A stretch of DNA of 64,000 nt from contig JAJTUQ010000005.1 in NCBI GenBank assembly GCA_021399445.1, forward strand, positions 124,001 to 188,000, written 5' to 3'. The stretch is from Xylogone sp. PMI_703. Its lineage: Eukaryota > Ascomycota > Leotiomycetes. The notes beneath the pieces are model-generated. The model was given only the letters and a program-made list of their open reading frames with translations. It had not been told where the DNA came from and did no database searches. Positions 13,104-41,163 of the stretch are shown piece after piece. Made by a program: the position numbers and the translations under genes. Position 1 is the stretch's first letter, and each line of letters starts with the position of its first letter.

Positions 13104-13376
13104 ATAGTATTTTAATATTTTAATCTTAAAAATTAAATTTATAATTATAAAGTTTATTTATTTATTATTTTAAAGTCTAAATTAATTTATATAAAGTTAT
13201 TATTAAAATATTTAACAGAGAAGACACTTACATATAAAAATTTCTTAGTGTAAAATTAAAAACCAATTTTTATAACACTTATAAAGGTTATTAATAAAAG
13301 AATACAAAAACTTAATTAATTTATATATAAATTTCCAGAATTTTCACTTTTATAAATTTAAATATTATATTATTAA

Positions 13377-13623: not shown

Positions 13624-13633
13624 TTAGAACGTA

Positions 13634-14147: not shown

Positions 14148-15782
14148 ATGAGCAATCCAATTATTTCCAATGGTGGCAACAATGCCAATAAAGTTCAACA
14201 CAAAATCCGCACATCATGTGACGCCTGTCAAGACGCAAAAGTTCGATGTGGCCGAGAAAAGCCTACGTGTCGACGGTGTGAGAACCAGGAGAGAACGTGC
14301 ATATACAGCCATGCTCGACCACTGGGGCGGCCACGGAAAGTTAACAGTACCTCATCGGTAGCTTCTGCCACTAATACTACAACAATGGATGCACACAGGC
14401 ATTTCACTAGTCTACCTGAGCATAGAGTAGCGTCTGAGCAGGCCACCCCGATAGCTAGCGACATGAATAGAAACGCAGGACATGCGCATTCAACAAGACC
14501 GAGGTCGACGTCGAGAGAAAGCGATAATGTTAATAATGATAACAGCATTGAAATAAGCATAAACAATGACTGGCTAGACATCTCCCCATTACCTAGTGCA
14601 GAATCACGAACACCAATAGATATTTTGTTACCAGACAGTGACAATATCGGACAATCATCTATGTTCGGGGAGCAATCTCACAACATTGGAATTGACCCAA
14701 TGATACTGGAAAACGCGGACATGGATATTTCTTTGCCCGCTAGATTGTCGGGTAGTTTACAAGAGTCTTCTACATCGACGGACTATCATCTTTTACCCCC
14801 CTTGGAAGATAAACCGGAAGAATCTCAACAGCAACATTACCAAACTACCGGCGGCTCCGCATCAGATCAGATGACCACAAGTACAACGGACTGGGTCTTG
14901 GGGCTTAAATTTGACCAGAGACTGTCCTCAGCGTCATCGTCTCTTAATCCTGGAATGGAATTTACCCATAGTGGTGGTCCCCGCGAGAACCTATCAGACA
15001 GTCACTTCTTATTTGGTAGCCATCTTAATAGTAGTAGTGCAGGAGAGAGAGGCTCTTATACTGAGCATTTTAATCTGCGCCATCCCTTATCCACACTTGG
15101 CTCGAAAAGCCCCAATACTTCCACTGTATTACGCAGTACTAGCAGCCGTGGTAGTTCAGGTCCTCAAGGGCAGGGCGTCTTATTATTATCTCGTCAACGG
15201 ATGCAATGCACCTGTTGTGACTCTATACTCCAGACATTAGTCGACCTTGATATGCATCTTTCAGGCCGGTCGGCAATTAGCCTCGACTCAATAATGAAAT
15301 TTGAGAAAGAAACACGGATACAGACGCTGACAATTCTTAAATGTGATTCTTGTTCGCAAAAGTTTCGGCCACGAATACTCTTACTCATGGGAGTTGTTTT
15401 AGAGGCTGTTGTTGAGTTGTTGGAAGGAGTGCTGAATCAGACCCAGCAGCTGAGTGCATCGGCAACATCCATATCATCTTCGTCGAAGTTGGCCTCGCCG
15501 CCAGCGTCGATTTTCGAAGACAATACTACGAGTAGCACCCCGGGAGAAACAGTTAATAGCTGTTCCCTATGGTTAGGAGATTATGAAATCTCCGGACAAG
15601 AGAAGACCCAATTCCTCAAGCATCTAGTAACTACTCGACTACACGATATCGCAGACACGGTTCATCAACTATGCGAGAGTGTAGAGCAGTATTGCAATCG
15701 ACCAGCCTTTAAAGTAGGCACGTCAATGCTTGTTGAAGTCTATCGACATATACAAGCTATAGTCAAGTCACTGAAGCAATGA
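14148..15782 (+). CDS. Zn2Cys6 transcription factor with AflR-type C-terminal domain; probable pathway regulator
   Basis: Single-exon gene of 544 aa. The zinc cluster occupies residues 24-51 with spacing CX2CX6CX6CX2CX6C (C24, C27, C34, C41, C44, C51). A basic linker with GRPRK follows, as in aflatoxin-type regulators. Residues ~60-330 are low-complexity Ser/Thr/Asn-rich. The C-terminal ~200 residues carry the AflR regulatory-domain pattern: a Cys-rich QCTCCDSILQTLVDLDMHL start, the helix LLLMGVVLEAVVELLEGVL and a final helix ending IQAIVKSLKQ. It lies at the left edge of the PKS cluster next to the non-haem iron oxygenase. The inferred role is cluster-specific activation by binding CGG-type sites. 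No shared operator was established by eye. Confidence 0.88.
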   Translation: MSNPIISNGGNNANKVQHKIRTSCDACQDAKVRCGREKPTCRRCENQERTCIYSHARPLGRPRKVNSTSSVASATNTTTMDAHRHFTSLPEHRVASEQATPIASDMNRNAGHAHSTRPRSTSRESDNVNNDNSIEISINNDWLDISPLPSAESRTPIDILLPDSDNIGQSSMFGEQSHNIGIDPMILENADMDISLPARLSGSLQESSTSTDYHLLPPLEDKPEESQQQHYQTTGGSASDQMTTSTTDWVLGLKFDQRLSSASSSLNPGMEFTHSGGPRENLSDSHFLFGSHLNSSSAGERGSYTEHFNLRHPLSTLGSKSPNTSTVLRSTSSRGSSGPQGQGVLLLSRQRMQCTCCDSILQTLVDLDMHLSGRSAISLDSIMKFEKETRIQTLTILKCDSCSQKFRPRILLLMGVVLEAVVELLEGVLNQTQQLSASATSISSSSKLASPPASIFEDNTTSSTPGETVNSCSLWLGDYEISGQEKTQFLKHLVTTRLHDIADTVHQLCESVEQYCNRPAFKVGTSMLVEVYRHIQAIVKSLKQ

Positions 15783-16492
15783 TATTTCATTACGATCTAT
15801 GCTTCCGCAGAGCACTTGGTTGGGTTGAGAGTGGCTAACAATGCTGTTGGAATCAAATCCGGTAACCGGCAGATGTAAGGAACCAAGGTATTGTATTGAT
15901 CAAGTATCATAATGTATAAACTTGTTACGGCCTTCGTGTATACTTTACTACAGGCTGCAATGCTTCATACCTTTATCTGTGCATATTCGCCGAATACTAT
16001 GGAAACAGTGCACAGACAAAAAAGGCGTAGAATATTACGACCTATATGAAGTAGCTATGTATATACGCACCCCATGAGGGCAAAGTATAGATTATAAGTT
16101 GAATAGATACAACTATATCTCCAAAGGTGTGCAATCTCCGCAACCAAAAGGCTCCCTCCTTACTCACATTCTCTCGCTGTAAAATTGTATTCGAGTTCCT
16201 TTGGATAGAGCAAAGATCCGGTAGTAAATCGTATGATACAATCGTATGATGCCTATTTGATTCGGGTCTTTTTGTAAATTGATCCAAAGCTGATGCCGGC
16301 ATATTTCGGGGGATTGTATCCCTGACCCTGATTGGACGAATTCAGGGCCATCGAGTCACTAGAGCGATCTAGACAGGCATATAACCAAATCGAAAATGAC
16401 TCGACACAAATAGAGATGAAAAAGAGGTAAATAAAGAAATACAACGAATCACATTACCGTTCGGGAAAAGTGAAAGAACCAAAGAAGTCAAA
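15783..16492. other. Intergenic, no gene seen
   Basis: 710 bp between the regulator stop and the oxygenase ATG, with only short chance ORFs. It should hold the oxygenase promoter and the regulator's 3' UTR. Confidence 0.55.
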
Positions 16493-17385
16493 ATGCCGCA
16501 CGCCAACTACGAGACCCCAGAAGTCATTCTTCAATACTTTGCACCGAACCAAGATGGCTCTCCGCCAGATGCCAACGATCTCGAAATTCAATACGGAGCC
16601 AAGAATCTTCATCTCGCTGCAGTCACTCTAAATGACCTTCGGTCTGATAAAGATAAGGTCACCCTGACTGAGCATGGACTCCAGCTCATCAATCACGAGA
16701 CTGCGATGGCTTATGAAGATTTCAAAGACCCGGAGAAGATTAAAAAACAATACTATCCTGAAGTTGCAGAGGCGATCAAAAAGACGTATATATACCCATA
16801 TCATCCCGTTCGCTACGAATTGCATTGGTTAACAAGAAGATCAGTACCGGGGCTCAAAAGGTCATCTGTTTCAACCACAATGTCCGCTCCGAGGCTGCCC
16901 CAAAGCTCGATATTTCCAAGCATAAAGTAGATCATATCGGCCCCATGCGCCGGGTTCACGTGGATGTTGCGCCCCGCGGCACCTTCGAGGCTGTCGAGAA
17001 ACGGGCTGGAGAGGCTCTGATGTCCTCAATCCGAGGACGCTGGAAGATCATCAATTCTTGGAAGCCACTGAAGACTGTGCAGCGAGACCCGCTCGCTATA
17101 GCAACCGGGCCTTCGTGCCCAGATGAGGACCTCGTGGAATTGACTCGTTATCGTCCGGATGGCTCTTTGAGCGAGTCAAGGTACTCGGTGTTGTATGATC
17201 AGAGACATAAGTGGTATTGGGTTCCGATGCAGAAGCCAGATGAAATGCTGCTTTTTAACCAGTACAGCGATGATCCAAATCGCACGACGGCGGATCGTGT
17301 GGCTCACTGTGGTTTTACATTACCTGGTGCGGAGAATAAAGAGATTAGAGAGAGTGTTGAAGTGCGCGCTTTGGTCATCTATTGA
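16493..17385 (+). CDS. Non-haem iron oxygenase / CmcJ-AsaB-NvfI family hydroxylase-methyltransferase-like
   Basis: Two exons, 16493..16785 and 16845..17385 (277 aa); the 59-nt intron is GTATAT..CAG. The protein belongs to the fungal AsaB/CmcJ-like family. Its members include 2-oxoglutarate-dependent oxygenases such as NvfI and EfuI-type proteins and are common in metabolite clusters. The family core FNHNVR is present, followed by VHVD (His136, Asp138), AHCGF (His252) and VRALVIY near the C-terminus (Arg272). These give the expected 2-His-1-carboxylate iron site and a co-substrate arginine. Known maleidride clusters also use 2-oxoglutarate oxygenases for late hydroxylations, so a tailoring role is likely. 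The exact position oxidised is unknown. It is convergent with the MFS gene, 176 bp apart. Confidence 0.82.
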
Positions 17386-17561
17386 GCCCTCTGAGTCAAA
17401 AAGTTTACGCAGTAGAAACAGTAGTTTTATTTCCGAATAAGAGTAGTTAGAATTTATTTCCTTATTCGTTACGCCGGGGGACTTGATTATAACAGCTGTA
17501 CACTTATTTCTCAATCTAATATAATAATAGTTAACTTCCCTAGGCTTTCCGTCTGTGACAA

Positions 17562-19446: not shown

Positions 19447-20191
19447 ATGCCTGCGCTGAAGATCCTCTGCTTACATGGGGCTGGCATGAATTCCGAGGTA
19501 TCATACCCATTACTTGGTATTGTTTCAATTCTAATGGGTAAAATAGATAATGAAATCGCATCTTTCATACTTGACTAAGATTCTTGAAGAACGCAATATT
19601 GCTCAGTTTGAATACGCCGAGGGATCCGTCGAAACAGAGCCTGGTCCCGGCATTACTCCAGGCTTATACGAAGGACCCTATTACTCCTTTTTCACTTGGC
19701 CTCCAAAAGTAGGAAATTTACAGGATGAAGAATCGGTTCAAAATGCATATGAAGAGCTCCTGGAGGTAATCGATGAGGAGGGCCCATTTGACGGATTACT
19801 GGGGTTCTCCCACGGCGGTTCATTCCTGGCTGAACTGTTGGCTGGATACGCTCGCGAGAAAACTGGATCAGAAGTTGAGCGGCTGGCTCGCTGCGCGATC
19901 TTTATTAATTCATTTCCACCTTTTCGTATGGATCCGGAGCAGAATCCGATTATTGACTATGAGCTGTTGAAGTCCTTTCCGAAGATCCCGACATTACATA
20001 TTATCGGTATGTCGGATTTTGTGCATGAGTATTCGACAATCTTGTATAAAGAGTTACATCAGAGGGCGCCGACATCCACGATTTTAGTTCCCCATCCTAA
20101 AGGTCATGAGATTCCGAGAGATCCAAGTATCGCGAAAAATATCATTGCTGGTTTTGAGGCATTGAATTTGGCCGTTTCTTTCAACCATTGA
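19447..20191 (+). CDS. FSH1-family serine hydrolase; probable PKS chain-release enzyme
   Basis: Exons 19447..19497 and 19547..20191 (231 aa); the 49-nt intron is GTATCA..TAG. The start MPALKILCLHGAGMNSE is the standard FSH1/DUF341 opening. The nucleophile elbow is GFSHGG (Ser105), a conserved acid lies in GMSDF, and the histidine is in PKGHEIP (His204). Length is typical. The PKS in this window ends at its ACP and has no thioesterase or reductase, so a trans-acting hydrolase is needed. In characterised maleidride clusters a homologous hydrolase is a core gene. The role of freeing the acyl chain before alkylcitrate synthesis is therefore inferred with good support. There is no signal peptide or C-terminal peroxisomal signal, so it is probably cytosolic. 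Confidence 0.88.
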
Positions 20192-20351
20192 CTGTAGGTA
20201 ATTTTAGTTTGATTTTTCTACCCAGACACAAAGCTAATTTGGCTTTCTAACAATGCTATGGTTTCTTTTAAAACTGTACTATATTGGAGTTTATATCTAA
20301 TTAATTTAGGAGGAGTCAAGGCACCACAAATCAATGTGAGAGATCTCCTCT

Positions 20352-21003
20352 TCAGTATGTCGCAGTCAGAAACCAATTCCCAGCTATTGGCTCTCCCAGC
20401 CCAGCTTCCTTTACAAGCTGCTCGATGTTAAAACCCAGCCTTGCCGCAATCGTGTTTCCCAAATACTTTTCAAACTCTTCTGGTAGTTTATATTCTTCAG
20501 GTTGTACGAATAACACTTCAACGTAACGGTGAGCTGGCCCCGGTGGAGGTGCTGGACCAGCATACATCGCTTTGGGCAAGGTGCTATCACTTGCAACCGA
20601 TAATTCATGGGTCTGGTCGTTGAGGACGAGGTCCGGCTGATACCAATGTAGGAGAGGGTACTTCATGCCACTGCGGTCAACGTCCATGTCGATCATGAAA
20701 ACCATGTATTTCCAAGACAGATGGTAGATTGGTGTTTGGAGATGGCGAACTGTCAGGAGGGAGTTCAGGTTAAGTCGAGGAGCAGATTGAGTTTCTGGTG
20801 TATTGATTAGCATCATCCAGATCGGCGGAGTTAAACCGAGTAAATTTACCATTTACGTATAATTCATGACCTGGATGAACTGAAACACCATGTTGGAACG
20901 TTACACCTAGACGCAACTTGGTTGATGGTTTGAATCCGGGGGGTGTCTGACAATGCACGTTGATGGCGGCAAGAAGGGCTACGGAAATAGAGAAGAAAAT
21001 CAT
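20352..21003 (-). CDS. PEBP-like protein 1, secretory; maleidride dimerisation partner
   Basis: Exons on the minus strand are 21003..20850 and 20794..20352 (198 aa); the 55-nt intron is GTAAAT..CAG. Residues 1-18 (MIFFSISVALLAAINVHC) form a signal peptide. The mature protein has the phosphatidylethanolamine-binding-protein fold: MVFMIDMDV replaces the classical DPDAP loop (residues 87-90), LHWYQPDL corresponds to the CHWI strand, and YAGPAPPPGPAHRYV (129-143) is the PEBP motif-2 region with GPAHRY. A sequon NET at residue 51 fits passage through the ER. In maleidride pathways, PEBP proteins assist KSI-like enzymes in monomer coupling. It lies between the hydrolase (convergent) and the alkylcitrate dehydratase (same strand). 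No lipid-binding function is implied. Confidence 0.88.
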
Positions 21004-21331: not shown

Positions 21332-22825
21332 TTATAGTTTTGCTATCCCATTTGTATCTTTCGTAAATAAGTCTACAAATGTCGAAACAGGCATATCATG
21401 CTGCTCAATACTCCTGGATATATTTGCAATCTCAGCATCGGTAAAGCCCAATCTCATATTCCTCTCAAACTTCCGCTGCTGTAGTTCCTTCGTTCTCGAA
21501 TTTTTCAAATGTCCAGCTGGATATTCCACTAGGACTTCATCTAGTACGGCCCCATTGTTCAGATAAACAGTCATGCCAGCTCCACAACTTTTAGTCTCCG
21601 GATCGAGATATCTTTGGGTAAAACCTTGATCAACTCTGATGATGATCTTTTCTCGCAAATCATCCATCTCCTTGCTATTTGCATACGGACTGTCATCCAT
21701 GTAATCTTCCGCATCCGGAAACCTGCCTTTTAGAAATACAAGCGCAATTACATATTGAATACAATGATCGCGATCGGCTGGATTAGATAATTGACCTGTT
21801 TTGTTAATGATCAAATTCGCAGCTGCTGTGACGCGCAGATCAATGCTCTTTATGTCACCGACTATGTGACCACGGGATTTCAATCTATCGCCTTGTACAA
21901 GTGCTGCTTCCGCGGATGATATTCCATGCCCTTCGCATGGCATCAACTTGGTAAACACATTTTGAATTGCCCAATCACCAAAAGCCCTGGGCAATGCGAA
22001 TCCGGCCTCGAGACCAAACGTATGTACCAAAAACCCATAACGTTGATCCGTCAGTGCCTGCTTTGATCCCAATTGACCGGCCTGGGTAAGCAAACAGAGA
22101 TGCACTGCCTTCATTGCAGCATCACCAGCTGCCCACCCCTTGCGCGAAGTAGTGTTGGCTCCCGATCTGTAGACACGGGATGGATGACCGTCCATCCAGA
22201 CGTGAGAAATAACATGCATCGTTTGTGTTTCAGTCATACCCATCAGCCACGAACATACAGAAGCTGCCGCAAGTTTGACGAGAATCACATGGTCAATGCC
22301 ATATGCATTGAAAGCATTCTGAAGCTGATAACATCCTTGGATTTCGTAGGCCTTTATCGCTGCTTCTAACAATGTCCTGATTGTCAATGGTGGATCTCTT
22401 CTGATAGTGGCGGAAGTGGCGGGGCTTCTCTGCTCCTCTCGACATAACCAGTCCATTATCGCGATAGTAGCAGACAGTGTATCCGACGGATGCCCCCATT
22501 CTGCTCCACCCAAAGCATCATTGTGATCGAGGTATCTGATCAAAATCCCTAGATCAAACGTTCCCTTGACAGGATCAAGAACATAAGATGTTCCAGGAAG
22601 ATGAAAGCCGCAAGGAACGGTTGTTCCAGGAATAATAGGTCCAAGCAATGTACGCGCCTCGGCAGATCTGTGTAATGTTTCTATGGCGCAGCCAAGGGAA
22701 TCGAGAATAGCGGTGCGGGCATGGCCAATGGAAGCTGATGATGAGGGAATGGTGTAGTTGTGTACATAGGATGCAATGTCGCGGATAGGTTTATCGAAGA
22801 GTATCTCGTCCTTCATTGTGACCAT
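21332..22825 (-). CDS. Alkylcitrate dehydratase (2-methylcitrate dehydratase, MmgE/PrpD family)
   Basis: Single exon, 497 aa, the usual length of fungal 2-methylcitrate dehydratases. PrpD-family stretches include ILDSLGCAIETL near the N-terminus, the GTSYVLDPVKGTFDLGILIRYLDHNDA region, WAAGDAAMKAVHLCLL, and MPCEGHGISSAEAAL (usual K-P-C-HG motif). In maleidride pathways this enzyme dehydrates the alkylcitrate so that the maleic anhydride monomer forms. In primary metabolism the family acts on 2-methylcitrate in the propionate cycle. The C-terminus reads GIAKL, and AKL is a good PTS1 peroxisomal signal. There is no obvious mitochondrial presequence, unlike the primary-metabolism enzyme. It is oriented the same way as the alkylcitrate synthase, 1.3 kb downstream of it. 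Confidence 0.9.
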   Translation of the reverse strand: MVTMKDEILFDKPIRDIASYVHNYTIPSSSASIGHARTAILDSLGCAIETLHRSAEARTLLGPIIPGTTVPCGFHLPGTSYVLDPVKGTFDLGILIRYLDHNDALGGAEWGHPSDTLSATIAIMDWLCREEQRSPATSATIRRDPPLTIRTLLEAAIKAYEIQGCYQLQNAFNAYGIDHVILVKLAAASVCSWLMGMTETQTMHVISHVWMDGHPSRVYRSGANTTSRKGWAAGDAAMKAVHLCLLTQAGQLGSKQALTDQRYGFLVHTFGLEAGFALPRAFGDWAIQNVFTKLMPCEGHGISSAEAALVQGDRLKSRGHIVGDIKSIDLRVTAAANLIINKTGQLSNPADRDHCIQYVIALVFLKGRFPDAEDYMDDSPYANSKEMDDLREKIIIRVDQGFTQRYLDPETKSCGAGMTVYLNNGAVLDEVLVEYPAGHLKNSRTKELQQRKFERNMRLGFTDAEIANISRSIEQHDMPVSTFVDLFTKDTNGIAKL

Positions 22826-24100: not shown

Positions 24101-25643
24101 TTAAAGCCTGGCCTGAATCTTGGTCTCCGCATCACCCGTACGGCTGTCCTCTTGAGCTAACCCTGGCCCGACGTATAAGTCTGTAGCTCTGAAAATCTTG
24201 ATCGGTTGATCTATAGCAAAGTTAGTTCTTATCCTTGAACGAGATGACGGGAGGAAAGCACATACCCATAGCTTCGCGCCAGTGAGCCATTAAACCAATA
24301 ATTCTATGGAACATGTTTGCAGCACAGATCATATCCCAATCAAACCCCCTATATCCGGCTATGTTAGATCAAAATGAAACCAGGAAGAAGTCAAACATTG
24401 ATACGGACCATGCTTTAAACAAGAAATGCGTATAGAAATCCGCATTCGCCCTCAGATTTCTCTTGATGAAATACTCATCCGACGATGCAAGCCTGTCAAT
24501 CTCCTGCGCCAATCCCAACATTGGCTCCTTCTCTGGCGTAAAATCCATCATCTTCAGCCATCTCTTCACCGATGCTAGACGCGGATCCTCACGCTTATGT
24601 AGTCGATGACCAAACCCGAATAGTCTCCTCTCACGCCGTTTGACTTGTTCCAAGAAAAGAGGCACCTTATCGACGGATCCGATCGATTTCAAGGTTATAG
24701 CACCGGCTTCTTGCGCTCCGTAGTGTAAGGGTCCATACGCGGCGGTAATCGCACTAATCAGGCATGAGATTGGGTCAGGAAGTGAAGAGGCGGTAGAAAG
24801 CATGACGACAGTCGATTGAGTCATTCCATTGTCACTATTCAATACCATGCCTTCACGGAATGTAACCAGATAGTTGTGATCAACGGGGCAGCGCATCATG
24901 GTGAAGACGTTTTGGTAGAACGATTTCTTGGGGTCGGCAGGAATGTAAGGAAGCTGCTTCCTGTGAGAGTTGATGAGGCCCATGACTACTGCAAAGGCAG
25001 CTGTTGCTTGAATGACCCCTTCATCGCAGAGAGCACTGTTACCGTGATAAATGTTATCACCATGGATGACTGGCAATGAGGATGGATTGGCAGAGAGGAA
25101 TGCAGCCAAGCCAGCAACGATCATTGGAAGGGGATGCGATGTGCGTCTTTAAACTAGATATATCAGCTTTCTTCCGGATTTTTAGAAGAAAGTTACATAC
25201 GGAAAAGCCTGTATGACTTTAACAACAGTCTCCGGGACATTGGTCATCGCGTTAGCAAGGCGCCGACGTAGCTTCTCTCTTTCTTCTGGGAAGGGATCCT
25301 TTCCAAACACCAGAAGGTGAAAATGGTCTTCAAAGTCGGCATCCCGTCCCCAAATTTGATTTGCCAGGAAGCCTCTAAAAAGTGTAATTCCAGATACGGG
25401 GTCCCTATGTGAAACCGCATTTAGCATGACTCAAATACATGCAATATTGATCTATACACACCGCCCGGTAACCTGAGTTTTCTTGATAATTGTGTTTTGC
25501 AAGCCCGGGTCATAAAGGGCGAGTTTTCCTGTCGGCGATGTAATCTTTTGAAAATCTGTAGCAGAGACTGTATCAGCTGTGATAGGGATTGTGTATTGTT
25601 TGGATGTGCGAGAGTCCTGGACGAGGAGCGTACCGTCCGACAT
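24101..25643 (-). CDS. Alkylcitrate synthase (citrate synthase family), five exons
   Basis: Exons on the minus strand are 25643..25462, 25404..25201, 25146..24409, 24348..24266 and 24210..24101 (438 aa). Introns of 54-60 nt all end in AG. It condenses an acyl thioester with oxaloacetate. Citrate-synthase active-site residues are in place: GPLHYGAQEAG (His270), GFGHRLHKREDPRL (His309) and ADFYTHF (Asp365). In primary citrate synthases the first segment is usually HGGAN, so HYGAQ is a local substitution beside the catalytic His that could suit a bulky acyl chain. There is no mitochondrial presequence, and the protein ends in ARL, a PTS1-type tripeptide. The start MSDGTLLVQ is the first ATG in frame. 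Its position beside dehydratase, KSI, PEBP and PKS genes argues against a primary-metabolism copy. Confidence 0.9.
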
Positions 25644-28451: not shown

Positions 28452-29456
28452 ATGGCAGCAGTAACAACCACAGAAGCAGCATCTCAGCCTCGTGATAGAG
28501 GTGATAATGCCTGGGCCTACAAAAAAGATGTTGCCTGGTATCGTCAAGATCTCAGTGAGGACACCATTGGCGAAATGCGCTCTGTTCTCGAGAGGTACAG
28601 CAAGATTCCATCCGAGAGAGTAGTTGATCATATTAAAGAAGTGAGGGATAAAGCTTGGGAGGTCGTGAGTAGCTAGAGCCGGATGAAATGCACAATGGCT
28701 AATGCGCAACTAAATTATAGTACCCCTATGGCAGTGTCGGTATGTTTGGGTTCCTAACCCTGAACATGCCGTACATGCCGGAATATACGGAAATTCTCGA
28801 TCGTCTGAGAACTGGGGATCAGAAATTTATTGATGTTGGATGTTGTTTTGGACAGGAAATTCGTAGATTGGTCAGCTACAGCAATTTTCTGCATACAAGG
28901 AACGCAAAGGTTGACACAGATACAACAGGTCTACGATGGTGTTCCATCTGAAAACCTCTACGGTTTGGACCTACACAAAGGCTTCATGGATATTGGCTAT
29001 GACCTATTTTGCGACAAGGCAACACTCCAATCAACCTTTATCGCAGCCGATATTTTCGATTCTTCTAACCCGGCCTTTGAGAATATCGCGGGGAAGATAG
29101 ATATCGTTCATGCGGGTTCTTTTTTCCATCTCTTTAGCTGGGATGAGCAAGTGAAAGCTGCCAAGCAGATTGTTAACTTCCTGAAGCCCCAACTAGGCAG
29201 TATGCTAGTTGGTAAACACGCTGGAGACATCAATCCAGGAAACAAGAGTAGACCAGGTCGTCTGGGATCTAGGTATAGGCACAATGGGGAGACATGGAAG
29301 AAGATGTGGGAGCAAATTGGAGAGGAGACGGGGACTAAGTGGGAGGTCCAAGTGGATGAGTTGGCTGATAATGAGTATTTCAAGGATGGGAGACAGTATG
29401 GTGACTGGGATTCAGAGACTACGAGGCGGTTGCAGTTTTGTGTGCGCAGATTGTAG
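28452..29456 (+). CDS. SAM-dependent methyltransferase, AusD/Trt5-like
   Basis: Exons 28452..28664, 28721..28870 and 28929..29456 (296 aa); introns are 56 and 58 nt. The N-terminal helix region ([20 protein letters not shown]) and [13 protein letters not shown] match the small methyltransferase family of fungal meroterpenoid clusters (AusD, Trt5, AdrK and relatives), which often methylate carboxylates. Motif I is [15 protein letters not shown], the motif II acid is in [10 protein letters not shown], then ADIFDSS, and [14 protein letters not shown]. The second donor, GTCAGC, is unusual, but splicing restores the RRL-VYDG joint typical of the family. In this cluster it might methylate a maleate/anhydride-derived carboxylate or a side-chain acid. 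That is inference; such an enzyme is not part of the known maleidride core. Confidence 0.85.
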
Positions 29457-29768: not shown

Positions 29769-30510
29769 TTATAGTTCAGCCTTCAAGTCAGTCTTATTCA
29801 GCATCGGCGGCAAACCGCCAGGGCCAGGAATGAAATCGTAGTGATGAACGCGATCACTTGAGTTGAACCAAATCTCATTATCCCACAGGGTGCGCATGAT
29901 CTGGCCGGCATCAACCCAGGTGCGAACCTCGCGGATGAGTCCGTCTTCGTCCCAGCGGGAGACCCAGAGACTAGTCAATTCCCATGGTTGTCCTGTATCC
30001 ATCAGCACTGTTCTTTCAATCAGAAGCAATCAAGCGAGGAATAAGATTCTCACCCTTGTTGGTAGTCGCATTGAAGTAAAATTCCTGCACACTCCATGCC
30101 TGGTCACATCCGCCGTGAATAGCCCAGAGTTTCGCATCAACTTTCGCATCCTTCAAGCAGTTATTCAACCGCCAAAGCGAATTGACAAACGCCATCTTGG
30201 GATTGTGGTAGTATCCCGCAAACGGATGATGGCCCATGATTCTGACGTGCAGATCAGGATGAGCGTACTTAAAGACAGCCTCCATATCATCGCTGACACT
30301 GTTGAAGGCTTCATAGATCCATGGCTGCGAGACGTATTTGCAATTGGTCTCAGGATTCTCGAATTCGAAGTGAGAAGGAAAGTCTGGGTCGTCGAGGGAG
30401 TAGGATGTCGATTGAATGGGCTCTTGGGTGTCGGCAGGAGAAAAAACTCGTGCAGAGACATAGCTGCTGCTTCCAACGAGAAAGAGAGAGGGGAGGATGG
30501 GCAAGCGCAT
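29769..30510 (-). CDS. Ketosteroid-isomerase-like (SnoaL/NTF2 fold) protein, secretory; probable maleidride dimerising enzyme
   Basis: Exons on the minus strand are 30510..30054 and 30007..29769 (231 aa); the 46-nt intron is GTGAGA..CAG. Residues 1-20 (MRLPILPSLFLVGSSSYVSA) form a signal peptide. An in-frame upstream ATG at 30552 would bury it and is less likely. The body has NTF2-like features: an N-terminal helix WIYEAFNSVSDDMEAVFKYAHPDLHVRIMGHHPFAG, the strand FYFNATT and the paired strands TSLWVSRWDEDGLIREVRTWVD. Three sequons (NAT, NSS, NKT) agree with ER entry. KSI-like proteins are the established enzymes of anhydride dimerisation in byssochlamic acid and related pathways. It is divergent from PEBP 2 across 456 bp. 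Only one KSI copy is visible here, while some known clusters have two. Confidence 0.82.
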
Positions 30511-30966: not shown

Positions 30967-31599
30967 TTGACAATGTGGTTCATCTTGCGCTGCCTTGAAT
31001 GGACACTTGCCAAACTCCTCTACCGCCGACGAGGCTATGATCATGATCTCTTCTACAAAGGCCTTGCATTTGAGAAATTTCCTAAACCAACTTTTGATGT
31101 CATATCGCCGGATTGCGGGCCAACAGGCGCAAAGCTCGGTGTCGAATACTCTCAATGGGGATCAGGCAAAGTGCCCCGATTAACATGGCCAGCTGGCGGC
31201 CCAGAAGTCAAAGAATACATTATCGTAATCGAGGACCCCGACGCGCCCATGGGACATTCCAATGTTCATGGCATTTACTGTTGCGTCCCAGGGGACAAGA
31301 CCAGCTTTGGTCCGGAGGATCTTGAGCTTCTTAGCGAGGATAAGAATGGCTTGAAGCGGATTAGTAGTGGATATCTTGTGGGCAAGAACAGACGCAATAT
31401 TGTGTATATTGCACCGAGGCCGCCTTTGGGCCATGGGCCGCATCGATACTTTTTTGAGGTTATTTCCCTGAGTCAGTCGTTGGATTCGCAGAAGTTAAGT
31501 GCCGTACCAACCAAGCAGGAGCTATCAGATGCGGTTATTGGCATGGTGTGTGGTTGGGGACTGTGGATTGCAACTTTTGAGCAGAAGTGGTCTATGTGA
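30967..31599 (+). CDS. PEBP-like protein 2 (YbhB/Raf-kinase-inhibitor-like fold)
   Basis: Single exon, 210 aa. Phosphatidylethanolamine-binding-protein signatures are clear: DPDAP at residues 90-94, NVHGIYCCVPG in place of the CHW-type strand, and GHGPHRYFF at 155-163 (motif 2). The first ~20 residues (MWFILRCLEWTLAKLLYRRR) are hydrophobic then basic. They could be a signal anchor rather than a cleaved leader. Unlike PEBP 1 it keeps the canonical DPDAP loop and lacks sequons, so the two are divergent and may have different partners or places. In maleidride clusters PEBP-like proteins raise the yield of KSI-catalysed coupling. An ATG two codons further in is an alternative start. Confidence 0.88.
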   Translation: MTMWFILRCLEWTLAKLLYRRRGYDHDLFYKGLAFEKFPKPTFDVISPDCGPTGAKLGVEYSQWGSGKVPRLTWPAGGPEVKEYIIVIEDPDAPMGHSNVHGIYCCVPGDKTSFGPEDLELLSEDKNGLKRISSGYLVGKNRRNIVYIAPRPPLGHGPHRYFFEVISLSQSLDSQKLSAVPTKQELSDAVIGMVCGWGLWIATFEQKWSM

Positions 31600-32920: not shown

Positions 32921-35900
32921 ATGTCACCTCTTATCCAAGATGATAAACTATATCAATCGAATGCGGCTATGCCTATTGCTGTTGTAGGCATTGGCTTCCG
33001 TGGTCCTGGGGATGCAACAAATGTCGAAAATTTGCTGAGGATGATCGCCGAGGGAAGGGAGAGTCGAACTGAGATACCCAAGGAGAAGTGGAACCATGAA
33101 GCTTTTTATCATCCTGACCCTAACCGATTTGGAACTGTGAGTAGTATTAAACAGTATTGAACATTCATCATGACCAATTGATGAGAGATGAAAGACGAGG
33201 AGGCTAATGAGGGGCAGCATAATGTCACTGGAGGACATTACTTCCAACAAGACGTCTCGCGTTTTGATGCGCCATTCTTTAATATGACAGCCGCCGAAGC
33301 AGCCGCCCTTGATCCTCAACAAAGAATCCTTCTAGAATGCACATACGAAGCTGTAGAGAACTCAGGCATGAAATTGCACAGTTTTTCTGGTAGTAATACA
33401 TCTGTTTTTGTCGGTTCGTTCTGTGCCGATTACGCCGATGTTCTCTGGCGCGATGCAGAAACGGTACCTATGTATCAATGCACAAATGCTGGCCATTCTC
33501 GCGCAAATACGGCCAATCGCATTTCGTACACTTATGATTTGAAAGGACCCAGCGTTACTATAGATACAGCGTGTTCAGCAAGTCTGGTAGCTCTGCACCT
33601 GGCGTGTCAGAGTTTGAGGTCTGGGGATGCGGAACAGGCCCTCGTCGCTGGCTGCAGTGCAATTCTGAGCCATGAAGGAATGGTTACTATGAGTATGATG
33701 AGGTATGTTTGACCCGGAATTGCGCTAGATGATCCGAAGTGAAACTGGGGACCCCTGGAAAACTAACACTATATACCTACAGACTCCTCTCTCCAGAAGG
33801 GCGCTGTTACACATTCGACGAGCGCGCAGGGGGCTATGCCCGAGGTGATGGCGTTGGTGCCATCCTTCTGAAACCTCTCCATGACGCTCTTGAAGCAGGA
33901 GATACAATCCGAGCGATCATTCGGGGCACTGGGTCAAACCAAGATGGGAAAACTCCTGGAATTACCATGCCGAATGGCCTGGCACAAGAGGCTCTTGTTC
34001 GTAGTGTATATGAGAGGGTTGGTCTAAATCCACTCGATACAAGCTACGTCGAATGTCACGGAACTGGAACTCAAGCTGGTGAGGTGATATTCACTTGTGG
34101 GAATGGAAGCTTGCTAATAAACTCTTTGGAATAGGCGATTTCACGGAGACAAGCGCCCTTGCTCGTGTCTTTGAACCGGGACGACCTCATAATGAACCAC
34201 TCATAATCGGCTCTGTGAAGACCAACATTGGTCATTTGGAGGGTGCAAGTGGTGTTGCTGGAGTCATTAAAACCATTCTTATGTTAGAGAATGGCCTGAT
34301 TCTTCCAAACAGGAATTTTCAGAAGGGAAATCCGAAGATTCTCTTCGATGAGTGGAAATTACGAGTATGAGGTGACTCCTTTGTAGTGTCTTATGCATCC
34401 ACTGAAACCAATATAGGTCCCGTTAGCAGTCGAGAACTGGGAAATACCCAAACCTCGCCGCGCCTCTGTCAACAGTTTTGGATACGGAGGTGCCAATGCA
34501 CATGTCATTTTGGAGAACGCAGAAGATTACTTGCGAAGCCATAACTGGGATTTCCGGACTTGCACGAGGAAATCTGCAATTGGCGCTGTTCTGTCAAAGA
34601 GCAAGCTGACTTGTACCGCAACCGTCCTTGAAAATGGGTCTGCTACTATAGAATCCGCGGATAGCGCTGCATCTACTCCTACCTCAGAATTATCTGGCAC
34701 TAGCACACCTTCGAACTCCGGTCCTCGCGGCCGTCTCTTCGTCTTCTCATCATTTGACGAGACGACGGGAAAGAATTACGTCAAGAGTTATGAGAGGTAT
34801 CTCGAGGATAGATTGCAAATAGCTGAACCAGATAAATTTCTTGATGACCTTGCATATACTCTGGGTGAGCGACGAACGGATCATACCTGGCGTACAGCCA
34901 TTCCGGCTTGGTCAGCAGAGGAGCTTTTGCGCAAACTGCGTGAAGGCATAACTCTTGACAAAGCTAACCAGACTAAGAATCGCAAGATTGGGTTCGTATT
35001 CACTGGTCAGGGTGCGCAGTGGTGTGGCATGGGCAAGGAATTGATTGATCAATATCCTGTCTTTAAAGAGGCGATCGAGAGGGCTGGCGCTGCGTGCAAG
35101 AAGGCTGGTATAGCGTTTGATCTGAAAAGTAAGATATTAATCCGCAAATTGAGATTTTGACTCTATTAACTGGCATCACAGCTGAGCTCTACAAGGACCC
35201 CAAAGAGTCCGAAATCAACCGCGCAATCTATTCCCAGCCTCTTTCAACAGCTGTTCAGTTAGCTCTAGTAGATCTGCTAGCTTCTTGGGGCGTGAGACCT
35301 ACCTCTGTTACCGGTCACTCCAGCGGTGAGATTGCTTCTGCTTATGCTGCCAGAATTCTCAGCCTCGAGGATGCTATGCTGGTATCCTGTCATCGTGGTA
35401 TTGTTTCTAGTAGTATGGCGGAGCGTGCTGCCGTACCCGGGTGCATGATAGCTGTTGGCATGTCAAAGGAGGAGATCCTCCCTATTATCTCAACACTCAC
35501 CCGGGGTAAAGCTGTAGTGGCATGCTCTAACAGTCCATCCAGTGTGACCGTATCTGGTGATTTGCCTGCCATTGATGAATTGCATACTGTCCTAGATGGA
35601 AAGGGCGTCTTCAATCGCAAGCTGGTTGTGCAGGTAGCCTACCACTCTCACCACATGGAGTTGGTAGCGGAGGAGTATAGGAAAGCCATCTCCGCTATTA
35701 AAGTTCTGCCCGGTAACGACGTCGAGTTCTTCTCTTCCGTCACGGGTGAACGGGCAGTGCCGTCAGATCTTGGTCCAGATTACTGGGTATCTAATATGGT
35801 TGGCGAGGTCAAGTTCGATGATTCTCTCCGTCGTTTATGCATTGAGACTCAAGGTCCATCAGCAAACACCAAGAAGAGCATGCAGCGCCGCAAATCCAAG

Positions 35901-38900
35901 GTTTCTCCTGTGAGCACTCTTATTGAGATTGGTCCGCATTCAGCTCTCGCTGGTCCCATCAAGCAGATCATTCAGGCAAATGAGACTCTTAATAAGGCAT
36001 CTATCAAGTACTACTCCGCCTTACTTAGGAACAAAGATGCTGTTACTACCGCTCTCAACTTGATCGGACAACTCTTTGTTGCTGGGCACGAACCAAATCT
36101 TGGAGAAGTCAACAGACCTACAGGTCTTGAAAGTCATTCGGTCCTCATCGATCTGCCTCCATATCCCTGGAATCACCAGAATTCGTATTGGGCGGAGTCA
36201 CGTATTAGCAAGTTTTACCGTGAACGACGCTTTCCACGAACCGATCTTCTAGGTGGTCTGGAGAGAAACTCGAGCTCAATCGAACCTCGCTGGCGCAATC
36301 ACATTCGATTATCAGAAATCCCCTGGGTTCGCGACCACAAGATCCAAGGCAACATCATTTACCCAGCAGCTGGATACCTTGCCATGGCTATCGAGGCAGC
36401 CTGTCAGCATGCTAGTACAGTTAAATCAATTCCTGTAATCACAGGCTACAAGCTTCGTGAGGTTGTTATTGACTCTGCTCTCATTATTCCAGAGGATCCC
36501 GGTGAGGTCGAAGTTGCTATCACATTGAAATCATTCACGGACAGCATCCGGAATCCTTCCGATATGTGGGATGAATTTGTCATTTCGTCTGTCAACGCTG
36601 ACAGCCGCTGGACGGAACATTGCCGTGGGCTCGTGTCTGTTGTGGCTCCCCAAAAGGTCGTTAATATCATTGATGGACAAGCTCAACAGATTGCTGAGAA
36701 GCAAGGGTACGCTGAGCTTGTTGCCAGCTACGAGGCCAAATGCCGCCGAAACATCAACATTCCTCAATTCTATGAGCAGCTCACTGAGCTTGGTCTCGAG
36801 TATGGGCCAACTTTTGCCAATCTTAAAGAGGCCAAAGCAGCCCCTAATGCTTGTGTTGGCGAGTTGGAAATTCCGGATACAGCAGCTGTTATGCCCTATA
36901 ACTTCCAATTCTCATTCGTCATTCACCCAGCTACTTTGGATGCCTTGTTCCATACAATTTTTGTTGCCTTATCTACTGCCAATGGTGGTGTTTTCAAGGA
37001 CCCTGCAGTACCCGTCTCCGCTGGCGAAATCTTCGTTTCCGCCAATATTACCTCTAGTCCCGGTAGCAAGCTCGCAACATTCACATCAACCGAACAGAAA
37101 GACTACCGTTTCATGTCTGCCTCTATGACTGTGTTCCATGAAACCCATAAGCAACAAGGAGAGTTCCGGCCTGTTATTGAGATCAAAGACCTTACCTGTG
37201 CCACGCTTGCCCGTGAAGGCGCTGATAATTCGGCCAACGGCCAGTTGACTCGGGCCTATAACTTGGCTTGGAAGCCAAGTATTGACTTGCTCTCCGAAGC
37301 TGAGATCTTGGAGTTGTGTTCCTCATCAGGTTCATCGGAAGCTAAGGCCAATGGCATAAATGCGAGAGAGCTACTTGAGCGTGCCGCCTATTATTTATTG
37401 AAGAGGGCTGTTGCAGGCTCCGCCCCTTCTGAGACTGGGTCCACTTATGCTCAAAATTTATGGTCATTCTTTAAATCACAGAGCAGAATCGCTTCGTGGA
37501 AACATGCATACGATGGATGGGACCAACTATTCAAAGCGGATGTTGATGCTTTCATTGAAAGAGTAGTGTCTTCATCTAATGTTGGGAGGTTCTTAGGCGA
37601 GATTGGTGGAAAGCTATCTAAACTTCTGACTGGAGAGCTTTCTTCTGCTGAGTTTATAAAGGAATTAGATCTTAGGGTCTTTGTGGATAATATTCAACTG
37701 TTCCAAAACACCCAGTCAGCAGCAAAATACTTAGAGCTACTTGCACACAAGACACCAAGCTTGTCCATTCTTGCTGTTGGCCCCGGTTCAGGGGTCGCGT
37801 CTCTCGGATTCCTCAGTTTACTTGAGAAGAAGACATTTGCTCCATTTGCACGCTACGAACACAATGACATCGAATTCGACATCAGCGAGGTGGTCAAGGA
37901 GAGGTTCCCACAATGGGCTCACCTTGTTGGAACTCAACCAGTCGACATCAACCATGATATCCAAGGTCAGCAGGATGTTAAGACCAATTCGGTTGATGTC
38001 CTTTTAGCTTTCCATGTACTTGGTGACGCGGCTGCAATGAACAATGTACTTGTTCAATCCAAGCAGCTTCTCAAGCCGGATGGTAAGCTATTGTTTATTG
38101 GGCGTCCATTGAGGTCGCTTGTCGCGTCTGTTCTTTTCGGATATGTCCCTTCTGTTTTAGCAGAGAACGTATCCAAATCAGAGTGTAGTTTGTCGTCGAC
38201 AGAGATTGAGAGCTTGGTCGCCGAGAACGGATTTTCTAAAGATGCAGCTATTTCTACTGCTATTAACAGTGATAACTACAGCATGATGATAGCTTCGGTA
38301 AATACTCCTCAGGATACGAGTGCAAAACCCCAGAAGGTCCTAGTCATAACCGAGGACGAGAGTACCAACCTAGGGTCCCTTCCAACTCGACTCAGAGGTA
38401 CTGAAGTTACAGTTTCTCCTCTTTCGGAAGCTAGCCCAACCTCAGACCACACGTGCATCGTGCTCAGTGATCTATCCAGCAAAGCAGTCCTATCGGATCC
38501 ATCTTCTCAAGAATGGGAAGCTCTAAAGAAGATTATGCTCGAAGCCAACGGTTTATTGTGGGTAACGCGCGGTGGTGCCATTACTACGACCAATCCTAAT
38601 GGTAATATGGCCACTGGCCTGGTCCGCACCATTCGCTCTGAAAGAGGAGATGTCCCCGTTGTGACCCTTGATCTCGATGCGGAAAACCAACTTAATGAGG
38701 TGACAACAATGGATATTATCTTCAAAGTCTTCCGCCAGAGCTTCTATCCGGCTTTCAATGCCTCTGAAGTTGAGCAAGAGTACGCAGAGAGAAACGGACA
38801 ACTTCTTATTCCTCGTGTGGTCGAAGATGAAGAATTGACCAAGACGCTCGCTATTGCATCAGATAATATCCAGCCTCAACTTGAGCCTCTCCATCAACCT

Positions 38901-41163
38901 GGACGTGCTTTGCGCATGTTTGTTGGTACCCCTGGTCTCCTCGACAGCATTTTCTGGACTGATGACGATCGTATTGAGGCTCCTTTGCTTGATGACTGGG
39001 TTGAGATAGAAGTCAAGGCATCTGGCTTCAACTTCAAAGATGTCATGATGGCCATGGGGCAAATCAAAGTTGAAAACCTGGGTTGGGAGTGCAGCGGCGT
39101 CCTCACTAAGGTTGGTTCAGCAGTCAGCGGATTTACTATAGGTGATCGTGTTGTGTGCCATGCCTCTGGAACTTTTTGTACCAATGCCCGGGTGCATATA
39201 GACAATGTGCGAAAGATCCCCGATAGCATGACCTTCGAGACTGCAGCATCTCTACCAGTTACTTATGTGACTGCATACCACTCCATCTACAATATCGCTC
39301 GACTCCAAAAGGATGAGACAATTCTAGTCCACGCAGCAACTGGAGGCCTCGGTCAAGCTATCATAGAATTATGCCAATTAATCGGTGCTGAGATCTTTGC
39401 TACTGTAGGTACCCTGGATAAGAAGAAATTTCTCATAGACCACTTTCACATTCCAGAGGATCACATTTTCTTCAGTCGCGATCACAGTTTTGCCTCTGGG
39501 ATCAAACGTATGACTAAGGGTAAAGGTGTCGACGCAGTGATGAACTCTCTTGCTGGCGAAGGCTTGCGTCTTTCTTGGGAATGTATTGCGCCGTATGGAC
39601 GATTTGTGGAGCTTGGTCAGCGTGATATCGGTATCAACTCGCGTCTTGAGATGGGACAATTCATTAAGAATACCTCATTCACGGCGTTTAACTTAGCTTA
39701 CATGGTTCAGTATAATCCTAAGGTGGCGAATGAGGTGTTTACGAATGTTTTGGATCTGTTCTGGAAAGGTGCCATTAAGGGCCCTTCGCCCGTCGAGGTG
39801 TATAGCTTCTCGGATGTTGAGAAAGCATTTAGAAGAATGCAGACCGGCGGTCATATGGGTAAACTAGTTGGAAGAGCTGATGCAGACGCTATGGTTAAGG
39901 TCGGTCTTTCTTTTCTATAAGGTTAGATTATAAACTAACATATATTATTTAGGTCATTCCGCTTAATAGAAGCAAGCCATTGCTCCGCCCAGATGCTGCA
40001 TATGTCCTAGTCGGTGGCCTCGGTGGTATCGGGAGAGCCACTGCTCTCTGGATGGTTGGGCATGGTGCTCGTAACATTATCTTTGTTAACCGTAGCGGTG
40101 TCAAGTCCGACGAGGCTCGAGAGACTATTCGCGTATTGGAAGAGATGGAATGCAAGACCGCCGTATTTCCATGCGATATCACTAACGAGGAGCAAGTTAA
40201 ATCATTTACTGAGGATACTGCGAAAGTCATGCCACCTATTAAAGGTGTCATTCAGGGTGCTATGTTACTCAGGGTATGTTAATGTTTCCATGTCATCAGT
40301 TAGTATATTTGACACTGAGAAATGACAAACAGGACACACTATTTGAGAAAATGTCTCTCGAGGACTACACTACAGTCCTCCGCCCTAAGGTTCAAGGAAC
40401 CTGGAATCTACACAAGTTCCTACCTAAAGATATGGATTTCTTCATTATGGAGTCTTCTGTCAGCGGGATCGTGGGTAATGCTTCCCAGGCCGCCTACGCT
40501 GCTGGAAATACATTCCTCGACGCATTTGCAACGTATCGCACGTCCCAAGGCCTGCCCGCCACAACCATCGATCTCAGCGCCATCTCTGGCGTGGGATACC
40601 TCGCCAATAACTCGGAACTCAAACAAGCTATGGAGCGTCAGGGATTTGAATTCACCAATCCTAAGCGTCTAATGGCGCTGATTGAGTCTGCGATCCGTAA
40701 TCCAGCGCGTCCTGGCCAACAAGCTCATATTATCACTGGGTTAGGAACTTGGAACGAAGACAGTACACTTGGAGCGTTGACTCTGCCATTGTTCTCACAT
40801 TTCCGAAAATTATGCGCTGGTAACACAGACTCGAACAAATCTGGAGGCGGCCATAACCTCAAGGAAGCACTCAAAGCCGCAAAGACTCTCGATGATGCAA
40901 GCGAGTTAATCTTGGCTGCATTGGTGGAGAAGATTTCCTCTCGATCTGGAATTGGACTTGAGAACATCAACACCTCCAAGTCGATGCCTGACTATGGTAT
41001 TGACTCGTTGGTTGCGGTGGAGATGAGAAACTGGATCACAAAGGATATGGATAGTACCTTGCCGGTGCTGGAATTGTTGGCAAGTGATCCATTGACGCAC
41101 TTGGCTTCCAAAATTGCGCAGAGATCACGGTTGGTGCGGGTCACGGAGCAATCACAAGATTAG
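32921..41163 (+). CDS. Highly reducing type I iterative polyketide synthase (KS-AT-DH-cMT(degenerate)-ER-KR-ACP)
   Basis: Eight exons: 32921..33136, 33188..33702, 33783..34078, 34135..34364, 34417..35128, 35182..39899, 39953..40273 and 40333..41163 (2612 aa). Introns are 51-80 nt. Domains in order are as follows. KS ~1-430 has DTACSA (Cys201), ECHGTGT and TNIGHLEGASG. AT ~600-900 has FTGQGAQW and GHSSGE (Ser703). DH ~1009-1339 has HKIQGNIIYP (His1042) and HPATLDALFH (Asp1243). The cMT-like region ~1500-1640 has motif I reduced to AVGPGSGVAS, so methylation is doubtful. ER ~1890-2229 has HAATGGLGQA. KR ~2240-2430 has VGGLGGIGRA and SSVSGIVGNASQAAYAAGN. ACP ~2530-2600 has YGIDSL (Ser2561). There is no terminal release domain, which fits off-loading by the FSH1 hydrolase at 19447. 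All domains needed for a fully reduced or enoyl chain are present. It is the backbone enzyme of the proposed maleidride cluster. Confidence 0.95.

What the first reader, a model, noticed from the sequence alone, without database searches (positions are those of the whole stretch)
14148..41163. A complete maleidride-type gene set, with extra tailoring genes
In 27 kb the window encodes HR-PKS, FSH1 hydrolase, alkylcitrate synthase, alkylcitrate dehydratase, a KSI-like protein and two PEBP-like proteins. This combination is the known core for dimeric anhydrides such as byssochlamic acid and rubratoxin. Alkylcitrate pathways without dimerisation normally lack the KSI/PEBP pair. The added AsaB/NvfI-like oxygenase and AusD-like methyltransferase suggest a product that is oxidised and perhaps O-methylated, possibly undescribed.
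Basis: partly seen in the sequence, partly recalled or inferred. Interest (0 to 1): 0.88.

Follow-up and report, generated by a model that had tools for sequence, protein, structure and literature searches.

The report
Phomoidride-like gene cluster in Xylogone
The finding is real but mostly of a known kind: a complete set of fungal genes for making a dimeric anhydride, closest to the phomoidride type, in the fungus Xylogone sp. PMI_703, with hints of transfer between distant fungi and of a pathway split between cell compartments.

Summary
The gene set is present and open at 14.1-41.2 kb: regulator, AsaB/NvfI-like oxygenase, two MFS pumps, FSH1 hydrolase, two PEBPs, alkylcitrate synthase (ACS) and dehydratase (ACDH), AusD-like methyltransferase, KSI-like dimerising cyclase and one HR-PKS. 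The genome is Xylogone sp. PMI_703. The maleidride assignment holds. The 'extra' oxygenase and methyltransferase do not point to an undescribed product: both types occur in published phomoidride-type clusters. The cyclase is 93% identical to Talaromyces stipitatus TstC and 62% to PhiC, the methyltransferase 63% to PhiE, the PKS 62% to PhiA. But the PKS does not form an exclusive clade with PhiA, so chain length and product stay inferred. The 93% match crosses classes and exceeds three housekeeping comparisons (65-75%), so horizontal transfer is likely, resting on one gene; no T. stipitatus PKS was among the 120 listed hits. A second, scytalidin-like cluster exists in the genome. New lead: ACS and ACDH of both clusters, and the second cluster's enoyl-CoA isomerase-like protein, end in peroxisomal-type signals, while the cyclase looks secretory. 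New member of a known kind.

The parts
14148..15782 (+). Zn2Cys6 transcription factor, 544 aa, likely pathway regulator
   Evidence: Pfam Zn_clus above cut-off; open frame; role inferred from position
16493..17385 (+). AsaB/CmcJ-NvfI family Fe(II)/2-oxoglutarate oxygenase, 277 aa; exons 16493-16785, 16845-17385 (PhiK/TstK-like role inferred)
   Evidence: NF041278 182.9 bits against cut-off 80; NvfI in PDB E about 1e-22, with H136, D138 and H252 aligned to its metal-binding residues
17562..19094 (-). MFS transporter 1, 490 aa; exons 18876-19094, 17562-18815
   Evidence: Pfam MFS_1; model
19447..20191 (+). FSH1-type serine hydrolase, 231 aa; exons 19447-19497, 19547-20191; GFSHG nucleophile motif
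   Evidence: Pfam FSH1; motif
20352..21003 (-). PEBP-like protein 1, 198 aa, hydrophobic N-terminus; exons 20850-21003, 20352-20794
   Evidence: Pfam PBP; N-terminus
21332..22816 (-). alkylcitrate dehydratase (PrpD-like), 494 aa, one exon, ends IAKL (PTS1-like)
   Evidence: Pfam MmgE_PrpD N and C; PrpD models of NCBIfam, below their cut-offs; C-terminus
24101..25643 (-). alkylcitrate synthase (citrate synthase fold), 438 aa, five exons, ends QARL (PTS1-like)
   Evidence: Pfam Citrate_synt; citrate synthase models of NCBIfam, below their cut-offs; C-terminus
26323..28021 (+). MFS transporter 2, 546 aa; exons 26323-26661, 26720-28021
   Evidence: Pfam MFS_1; model
28452..29456 (+). AusD/Trt5-like O-methyltransferase, 296 aa; exons 28452-28664, 28721-28870, 28929-29456 (PhiE homologue)
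   Evidence: 100% to F5884DRAFT_859021, 63% to PhiE; Pfam Methyltransf_25
29769..30510 (-). KSI-like maleidride dimerising cyclase (TstC/PhiC homologue), 226 aa; exons 30054-30510, 29769-29992
   Evidence: TstC 93%, PhiC 62%; NTF2-like fold predicted for TstC
30973..31599 (+). PEBP-like protein 2, 208 aa, one exon
   Evidence: Pfam PBP
32921..41163 (+). highly reducing PKS KS-AT-DH-cMT-ER-KR-ACP, about 2600 aa, model of 8 exons, PhiA homologue
   Evidence: Pfam domains; motifs; PhiA 62%; trees

Best explanation
This is an intact maleidride cluster of the phomoidride type in Xylogone sp. PMI_703. Likely route: the HR-PKS builds a linear chain (hexaketide is the first guess, from PhiA being its nearest named relative); the FSH1 hydrolase releases the acid; a host CoA ligase activates it; the ACS joins it to oxaloacetate and the ACDH dehydrates to the maleic anhydride monomer; the MDC, helped by the PEBPs, couples two monomers to the nine-membered ring; the AsaB-like oxygenase and AusD-like methyltransferase tailor it to a phomoidride or close analogue; MFS pumps export it. 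Shown here: gene content, open frames, diagnostic motifs, homology to named phi/tst proteins, predicted fold of the TstC cyclase. Taken from published work on relatives: the enzyme steps. Inferred: chain length, product, compartments, and horizontal transfer between Eurotiomycetes and Leotiomycetes.
For: All six core functions of maleidride clusters (PKS, hydrolase, ACS, ACDH, MDC, PEBP; list in PMC8851701) lie in one 27-kb block. MDC 93% to TstC, 62% to PhiC. OMT 63% to PhiE and PKS 62% to PhiA, each the best named hit apart from the protein itself. In the trees the PKS lies on the PhiA side, apart from the scytalidin-like, cornexistin, T. atroroseus and Cercospora PKSs (100/100). Oxygenase in the CmcJ/NvfI family with its metal-binding residues. 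No isochorismatase was seen in the ORFs scanned, and PMC12231587 says the phomoidride cluster has no such gene (passages).
Against: No metabolite or expression data. The PKS is not an exclusive sister of PhiA: it branches outside a group that joins PhiA and a Delitschia PKS with five PKSs of Lindgomyces, Bipolaris, Didymella and Penicillium, and holding window, PhiA and Delitschia together is rejected (p-AU 0.003), so chain length is weakly supported. No T. stipitatus PKS appears among the 120 listed of 7,887 PKS hits, so cluster-wide likeness to tst is unproven. Coleophoma crateriformis, whose PKS PMC8851701 puts in a pentaketide clade, also has close MDC and OMT relatives (63%, 57%), so those two genes do not fix the product. 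No FMN oxidoreductase (PhiQ) was seen, but not every ORF was scanned. T. stipitatus BGC1 is reported to have an enoyl-CoA isomerase; no ECH_1 match was listed in the window (best candidates only).
Confidence: 0.7

Rival explanations
1. A maleidride cluster whose product is not a phomoidride: same core, but another chain length or different oxidation or methylation, hence an undescribed nonadride.
For: PKS only 62% to PhiA and outside the PhiA/Delitschia pair, exclusive clade rejected; Coleophoma MDC and OMT are about as close as PhiC and PhiE; AsaB-like oxygenases do varied reactions (PMC8851701).
Against: Each of the three proteins searched has a phi or tst protein as best named hit apart from itself; the tailoring gene types match the phomoidride set.
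Confidence: 0.3
2. Vertical inheritance instead of transfer: the cyclase is simply very conserved.
For: Only the cyclase could be compared with T. stipitatus; T. stipitatus PKS not listed. A 146-aa metagenome fragment (P0005) is also fairly close: 72% to the window cyclase over 61% of it, 79% to TstC.
Against: PhiC, Coleophoma (Leotiomycetes) and the window/TstC pair are 60-63% from one another; window and TstC pair on short branches, support 88/88; methylcitrate synthase, UAP1 and NMT of this genome are 75.0, 73.4 and 65.1% identical to PDB proteins that I recall as Aspergillus fumigatus.
Confidence: 0.25
3. A non-dimerising alkylcitrate cluster (sporothriolide or squalestatin type).
For: PKS, ACS and ACDH alone would allow it.
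Against: MDC and two PEBPs are present, and the MDC is 93% to a protein named dimerizing cyclase tstC.
Confidence: 0.03
4. A silent cluster that makes nothing under ordinary conditions.
For: No expression data; place 124-188 kb from one end of a 5.55-Mb contig.
Against: All 12 models are open with no internal stops; PKS, hydrolase and oxygenase active-site motifs kept.
Confidence: 0.1

Closest known systems
tst cluster (cluster 1) of Talaromyces stipitatus ATCC 10500
   Same: MDC 93% identical to TstC; AsaB-like oxygenase reported there (PMC8851701); monomer made by tstA, I, J in A. oryzae (PMC9890510)
   Different: Other class of fungi; enoyl-CoA isomerase reported there, not found here; the T. 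stipitatus PKS, methyltransferase and oxygenase could not be compared
phi cluster of the phomoidride producer ATCC 74256
   Same: PKS 62% (PhiA), MDC 62% (PhiC), OMT 63% (PhiE); hydrolase PhiM and oxygenase PhiK reported there (PMC9890510)
   Different: Moderate identity; PKS not in an exclusive clade with PhiA; FMN oxidoreductase PhiQ reported there, not seen here
putative maleidride cluster of Coleophoma crateriformis
   Same: Same class; MDC 63%, OMT 57%; AsaB-like oxygenase reported
   Different: PMC8851701 puts its PKS in a pentaketide clade; it has an enoyl-CoA isomerase
byssochlamic acid cluster of Paecilomyces fulvus
   Same: Same core functions; one KSI-like protein 44% to the window MDC
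   Different: Two KSI-like proteins; triketide chain (PMC8851701)
scytalidin cluster of Scytalidium album
   Same: Core set; ScyPKS 52% to the window PKS
   Different: Fits the second cluster of this genome (contig C3, PKS 77%) much better than the window

Membership tests
Maleidride biosynthetic gene cluster | HR-PKS with KS, AT, DH, cMT, ER, KR, ACP | tested here: met
   Pfam domains and motifs; cMT motif degenerate (AVGPGSG)
Maleidride biosynthetic gene cluster | AlnB-like serine hydrolase | tested here: met
   Pfam FSH1 and GFSHG motif; the AlnB subfamily itself was not tested
Maleidride biosynthetic gene cluster | Alkylcitrate synthase and alkylcitrate dehydratase | tested here: met
   Citrate_synt, MmgE_PrpD; matches of 45% and 50% at the second locus. 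Clade of ACS and ACDH not tested by tree
Maleidride biosynthetic gene cluster | Maleidride dimerising cyclase (KSI-like, NTF2 fold) | tested here: met
Maleidride biosynthetic gene cluster | Type 1 PEBP-like protein | tested here: inconclusive
   Two PBP-domain proteins present; type 1 or 2 not assigned by phylogeny
Phomoidride-type (phi/tst) cluster | PKS in the PhiA/TstA (hexaketide) clade | tested here: inconclusive
   On the PhiA side of the tree (100/100), but an exclusive window+PhiA+Delitschia clade is rejected, p-AU 0.003 (quick tree agrees); TstA was not available
Phomoidride-type (phi/tst) cluster | AusD-like methyltransferase (PhiE) | tested here: met
   63% to PhiE, best named hit apart from itself
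Phomoidride-type (phi/tst) cluster | AsaB-like oxygenase orthologous to PhiK/TstK | tested here: inconclusive
   Family confirmed; orthology to PhiK/TstK not tested
Phomoidride-type (phi/tst) cluster | Makes phomoidrides | not testable with these tools
   No metabolite data
CmcJ/NvfI oxidoreductase family | Profile match above cut-off and HxD...H facial triad | tested here: met
   NF041278 182.9 bits against 80; H136, D138, H252 align with NvfI
Scytalidin-type cluster (considered) | PKS close to ScyPKS; enoyl-CoA hydratase and isochorismatase genes | tested here: not met
   Window PKS only 52% to ScyPKS; no ECH_1 match listed in the window; no isochorismatase in the ORFs scanned

The most novel reading that the evidence does not exclude
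Maleidride synthesis is split between compartments: the polyketide acid enters peroxisomes, where ACS, ACDH and (in scytalidin-type clusters) the enoyl-CoA isomerase act on CoA esters, using peroxisomal CoA ligase and oxaloacetate; the monomer is then dimerised by a secreted or ER-lumenal, disulphide- and glycan-bearing cyclase with a secretory PEBP. This would explain the missing CoA ligase in many clusters and the low-yielding dimerisation in cell-free work. In addition, the phomoidride-type cluster moved recently between Eurotiomycetes and Leotiomycetes.
Probability: 0.45. Interest if true: 0.7.

Novelty: new member of a known kind. Interest (0 to 1): 0.42.

Why it matters
It adds a contiguous, intact phomoidride-like cluster to the two compared in the literature (phi and tst, from Dothideomycetes and Eurotiomycetes by PMC8851701), in a genome that also holds a scytalidin-like cluster, so two dimerisation systems can be compared in one cell. 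[quoted passage not shown] How the cyclase controls dimerisation, and what the PEBPs do, are open questions named in that review; the targeting signals described here make a simple localisation test possible.

Tried and rejected
Non-dimerising alkylcitrate cluster: rejected on the MDC and PEBPs. Byssochlamic or rubratoxin type: rejected as closest model, since the best named hits are phi/tst. Undescribed tailoring as an argument: not supported. T. stipitatus as source organism: rejected; the 5,548,043-bp contig and two identical proteins are Xylogone sp. PMI_703. Whole-cluster 93% likeness to tst: could not be shown; no T. stipitatus PKS in the 120 listed hits and no separate T. stipitatus methyltransferase among the 120 listed; the methyltransferase's 90%-identity cluster has 4 members, of which only Xylogone is named.

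My first gene predictions with loose intron settings chained genes together and were discarded; stricter settings were used, and the MDC, FSH1 and methyltransferase models were finished by hand. The isocitrate lyase comparison (81.5%) was dropped as a Eurotiales baseline because I recall the matched entry 5e9f as from a Sordariomycete; its model also kept what looks like an intron. The C20 KSI-like match (about 29%) had no other maleidride-like neighbour in 30 kb by tblastn with the window proteins except a weak MFS hit; of its ORFs one was scanned, without a Pfam hit. L052 (9.9 kb spanning the two C20 copies of the repeat arm) has no ORF of 150 aa. The paper searches for phomoidride enzyme names and for secretory terms gave nothing relevant. 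Prediction gave no model for the C3 PEBP and the C3 citrate-synthase fragment. My note says three cysteines are invariant in all seven cyclases; that is wrong: they are invariant in the 11 sequences aligned, while the C3 cyclase keeps two.
Full report
WHAT IS THERE. The window is G000:C21:124001-188000 of a 50.1-Mb fungal genome. Pfam scans of the long frames and spliced models give twelve genes between 14148 and 41163, in order: Zn2Cys6 regulator (+), AsaB/NvfI-like oxygenase (+), MFS (-), FSH1 hydrolase (+), PEBP (-), alkylcitrate dehydratase (-), alkylcitrate synthase (-), MFS (+), methyltransferase (+), KSI-like cyclase (-), PEBP (+), HR-PKS (+). All 12 models are open. The methyltransferase model is identical to an annotated protein and the PKS model differs from the annotated one by a single 10-aa stretch at a splice site; the other ten were not checked against annotation.

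WHOSE GENOME. The methyltransferase and PKS match Xylogone sp. PMI_703 proteins whose contig has 5,548,043 bases, the length of C21. Xylogone is in the Leotiomycetes. The search 'Xylogone sp. PMI_703' in the paper library returned one paper, on prokaryote-derived gene transfer (listing only). In a search for at least two of Xylogone, maleidride, phomoidride and nonadride, 16 papers matched and none of the 15 listed contained Xylogone. So I found no report of this cluster in print; that rests in an open-access library only.

WHAT THE PKS TREES SAY. A quick tree of 26 of the 120 listed proteins and a careful tree of 16 agree: the window PKS lies on the PhiA side, away from the scytalidin-like C3, cornexistin, T. 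atroroseus and Cercospora PKSs (100/100), but it branches outside a group that joins PhiA and Delitschia winteri with five PKSs of Lindgomyces, Bipolaris, Didymella and two Penicillium species. Holding window, PhiA and Delitschia together costs 44 log units, p-AU 0.003. I named that group after seeing the quick tree. TstA was not available. So the PKS is a PhiA relative, not proven to be a PhiA orthologue, and hexaketide length is a first guess.

WHY THE 'EXTRA' GENES ARE NOT EXTRA. PMC8851701 states that, of compound-linked clusters, only the phomoidride cluster has an AusD-like methyltransferase, with five more in orphan clusters, and that T. stipitatus cluster 1 has an AsaB-like oxygenase. 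PMC9890510 (outline, passages, sections 15 and 16 and part 1 of section 14) names PhiK as the likely phomoidride oxygenase. PMC12231587 (passages) credits TstK with a significant role and says the phomoidride cluster lacks an isochorismatase-like gene. From memory, and from no call, UniProt assigns tstE the methyl step and tstK the oxidations. So the set matches a published type. PMC13042317 (passages) lists a T. trachyspermus region with 46% fungiSMASH similarity to the phomoidride cluster, so further Talaromyces relatives may exist.

HOW IT LIKELY WORKS. PKS chain, hydrolytic release, CoA activation, condensation with oxaloacetate, dehydration, dimerisation by the MDC aided by PEBPs, oxidation and methylation, export. 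The enzyme steps are taken from published work on relatives in the papers above. The PKS methyltransferase motif is degenerate (AVGPGSG), in line with unmethylated maleidride chains (PMC8851701).

HORIZONTAL TRANSFER. The window cyclase is 93% identical to that of a Eurotiomycete (for its class), while PhiC, the Leotiomycete Coleophoma and this pair are 60-63% from one another. The seven-sequence tree pairs window and TstC on short branches, support 88/88. A 146-aa metagenome fragment, P0005, of unknown host, is closer than PhiC: 72% to the window cyclase over 61% of it and 79% to TstC. Housekeeping comparisons of this genome with PDB proteins that I recall as Aspergillus fumigatus: methylcitrate synthase 330/440 = 75.0%, UAP1 356/485 = 73.4%, NMT 265/407 = 65.1%. 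Even the second cluster's PKS and ScyPKS of Scytalidium, also Leotiomycetes, share only 77%. Against it: only one gene could be compared, and no T. stipitatus PKS was listed. PMC8851701 already suggests transfer of maleidride clusters between classes (zopfiellin and scytalidin; passage), so the idea is not new. I put transfer at about 0.7 for the cyclase.

SECOND CLUSTER. Contig C3 at about 186-217 kb has a cyclase, ACS, ECH-like protein, FSH1, PKS, two AsaB-like oxygenase matches (28-37% by tblastn, without a Pfam hit), two isochorismatase-like proteins, ACDH, MFS and a PEBP. Its PKS is 77% identical to ScyPKS, and the gene types match the scytalidin table in PMC8162798 (passages).

COMPARTMENTS (the new lead). 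Two of 12 window models end in a PTS1-like tripeptide: ACS (ARL) and ACDH (AKL). Of 12 models from C3, three do: ACS (SKL), ACDH (SKL) and the ECH-like protein (AKL). Expectation is 0.0026 per protein from composition; among the 252 proteins fetched by the cyclase, methyltransferase and PKS searches, one has such an end. The PF03972 (PrpD) search listed 15 matches at about ten places; eight places were fetched and seven gave a model, of which only the two cluster ACDHs end so. Against uniqueness: the primary citrate synthase model also ends in SKM, while methylcitrate synthase and the ATP-citrate lyase part do not. The cyclase has a hydrophobic N-terminus in the six sequences scored (best 11-residue mean 1.9-2.2, against 0.45-1.3 for ACS, ACDH, oxygenase, methyltransferase, FSH1 and PEBP2) and in the C3 one by eye, and an NSS/NST sequon in all seven. 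Three cysteines are invariant in the 11 aligned sequences, two of them kept in C3. The five phomoidride-type cyclases end in EL, perhaps an ER-retention remnant; this is weak. PEBP1 also starts with a hydrophobic stretch (2.6). No signal-peptide program was run, and no ACS or ACDH from another species could be examined. The word 'peroxis' occurs only in the reference list of PMC8851701, not in PMC9890510 or PMC4982102. In the search the only listed papers with both maleidride and peroxisom were PMC8851701 and a Streptomyces mining paper; (38 papers, 15 listed) showed none that appeared to link peroxisomes to this chemistry. These papers were otherwise seen only in the listing.

VERDICT. A real, complete maleidride cluster, closest to the phomoidride type: new member of a known kind.

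Noticed in passing
G000 contig C3, about 186-217 kb (loci L022-L026): Second maleidride cluster in the same genome, scytalidin-like (PKS 77% to ScyPKS), with an ECH-like, two isochorismatase-like and two AsaB-like oxygenase genes.
   Followed up: partly
C3:208436-209010 (L025): Citrate-synthase-like fragment with in-frame stops between oxygenase and ACDH, perhaps a relic of a second ACS. Left as found.
   Followed up: no
window 12853-13626: 774-bp AT-rich foldback element with 212-nt arms 100% complementary, just left of the cluster; the same arm occurs twice on C20 at 99%, in opposite orientation about 9.5 kb apart, with no ORF of 150 aa between.
   Followed up: partly
C20:1118335-1118881 (L042): Third, distant KSI-like match (about 29%) to the cyclase, with no other maleidride-like gene found within the 30 kb fetched except a weak MFS hit.
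   Followed up: partly
window 46-62.5 kb: Right flank holds an O-methyltransferase-like gene, an alpha/beta hydrolase, FAD_binding_3 and acetoacetate-decarboxylase-like frames, a Zn2Cys6 regulator and a P450: perhaps another small secondary-metabolism group without a core synthase in the ORFs scanned.
   Followed up: no
C1:4376121-4377164 (L027): The primary citrate synthase model ends in SKM, a possible peroxisomal signal, besides a mitochondrial-looking N-terminus: possible dual targeting.
   Followed up: no
PKS P0135, Delitschia winteri: A Delitschia winteri PKS is 60% identical to the window PKS and pairs with PhiA in the quick tree: its gene neighbourhood might be another phomoidride-like cluster.
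   Followed up: no
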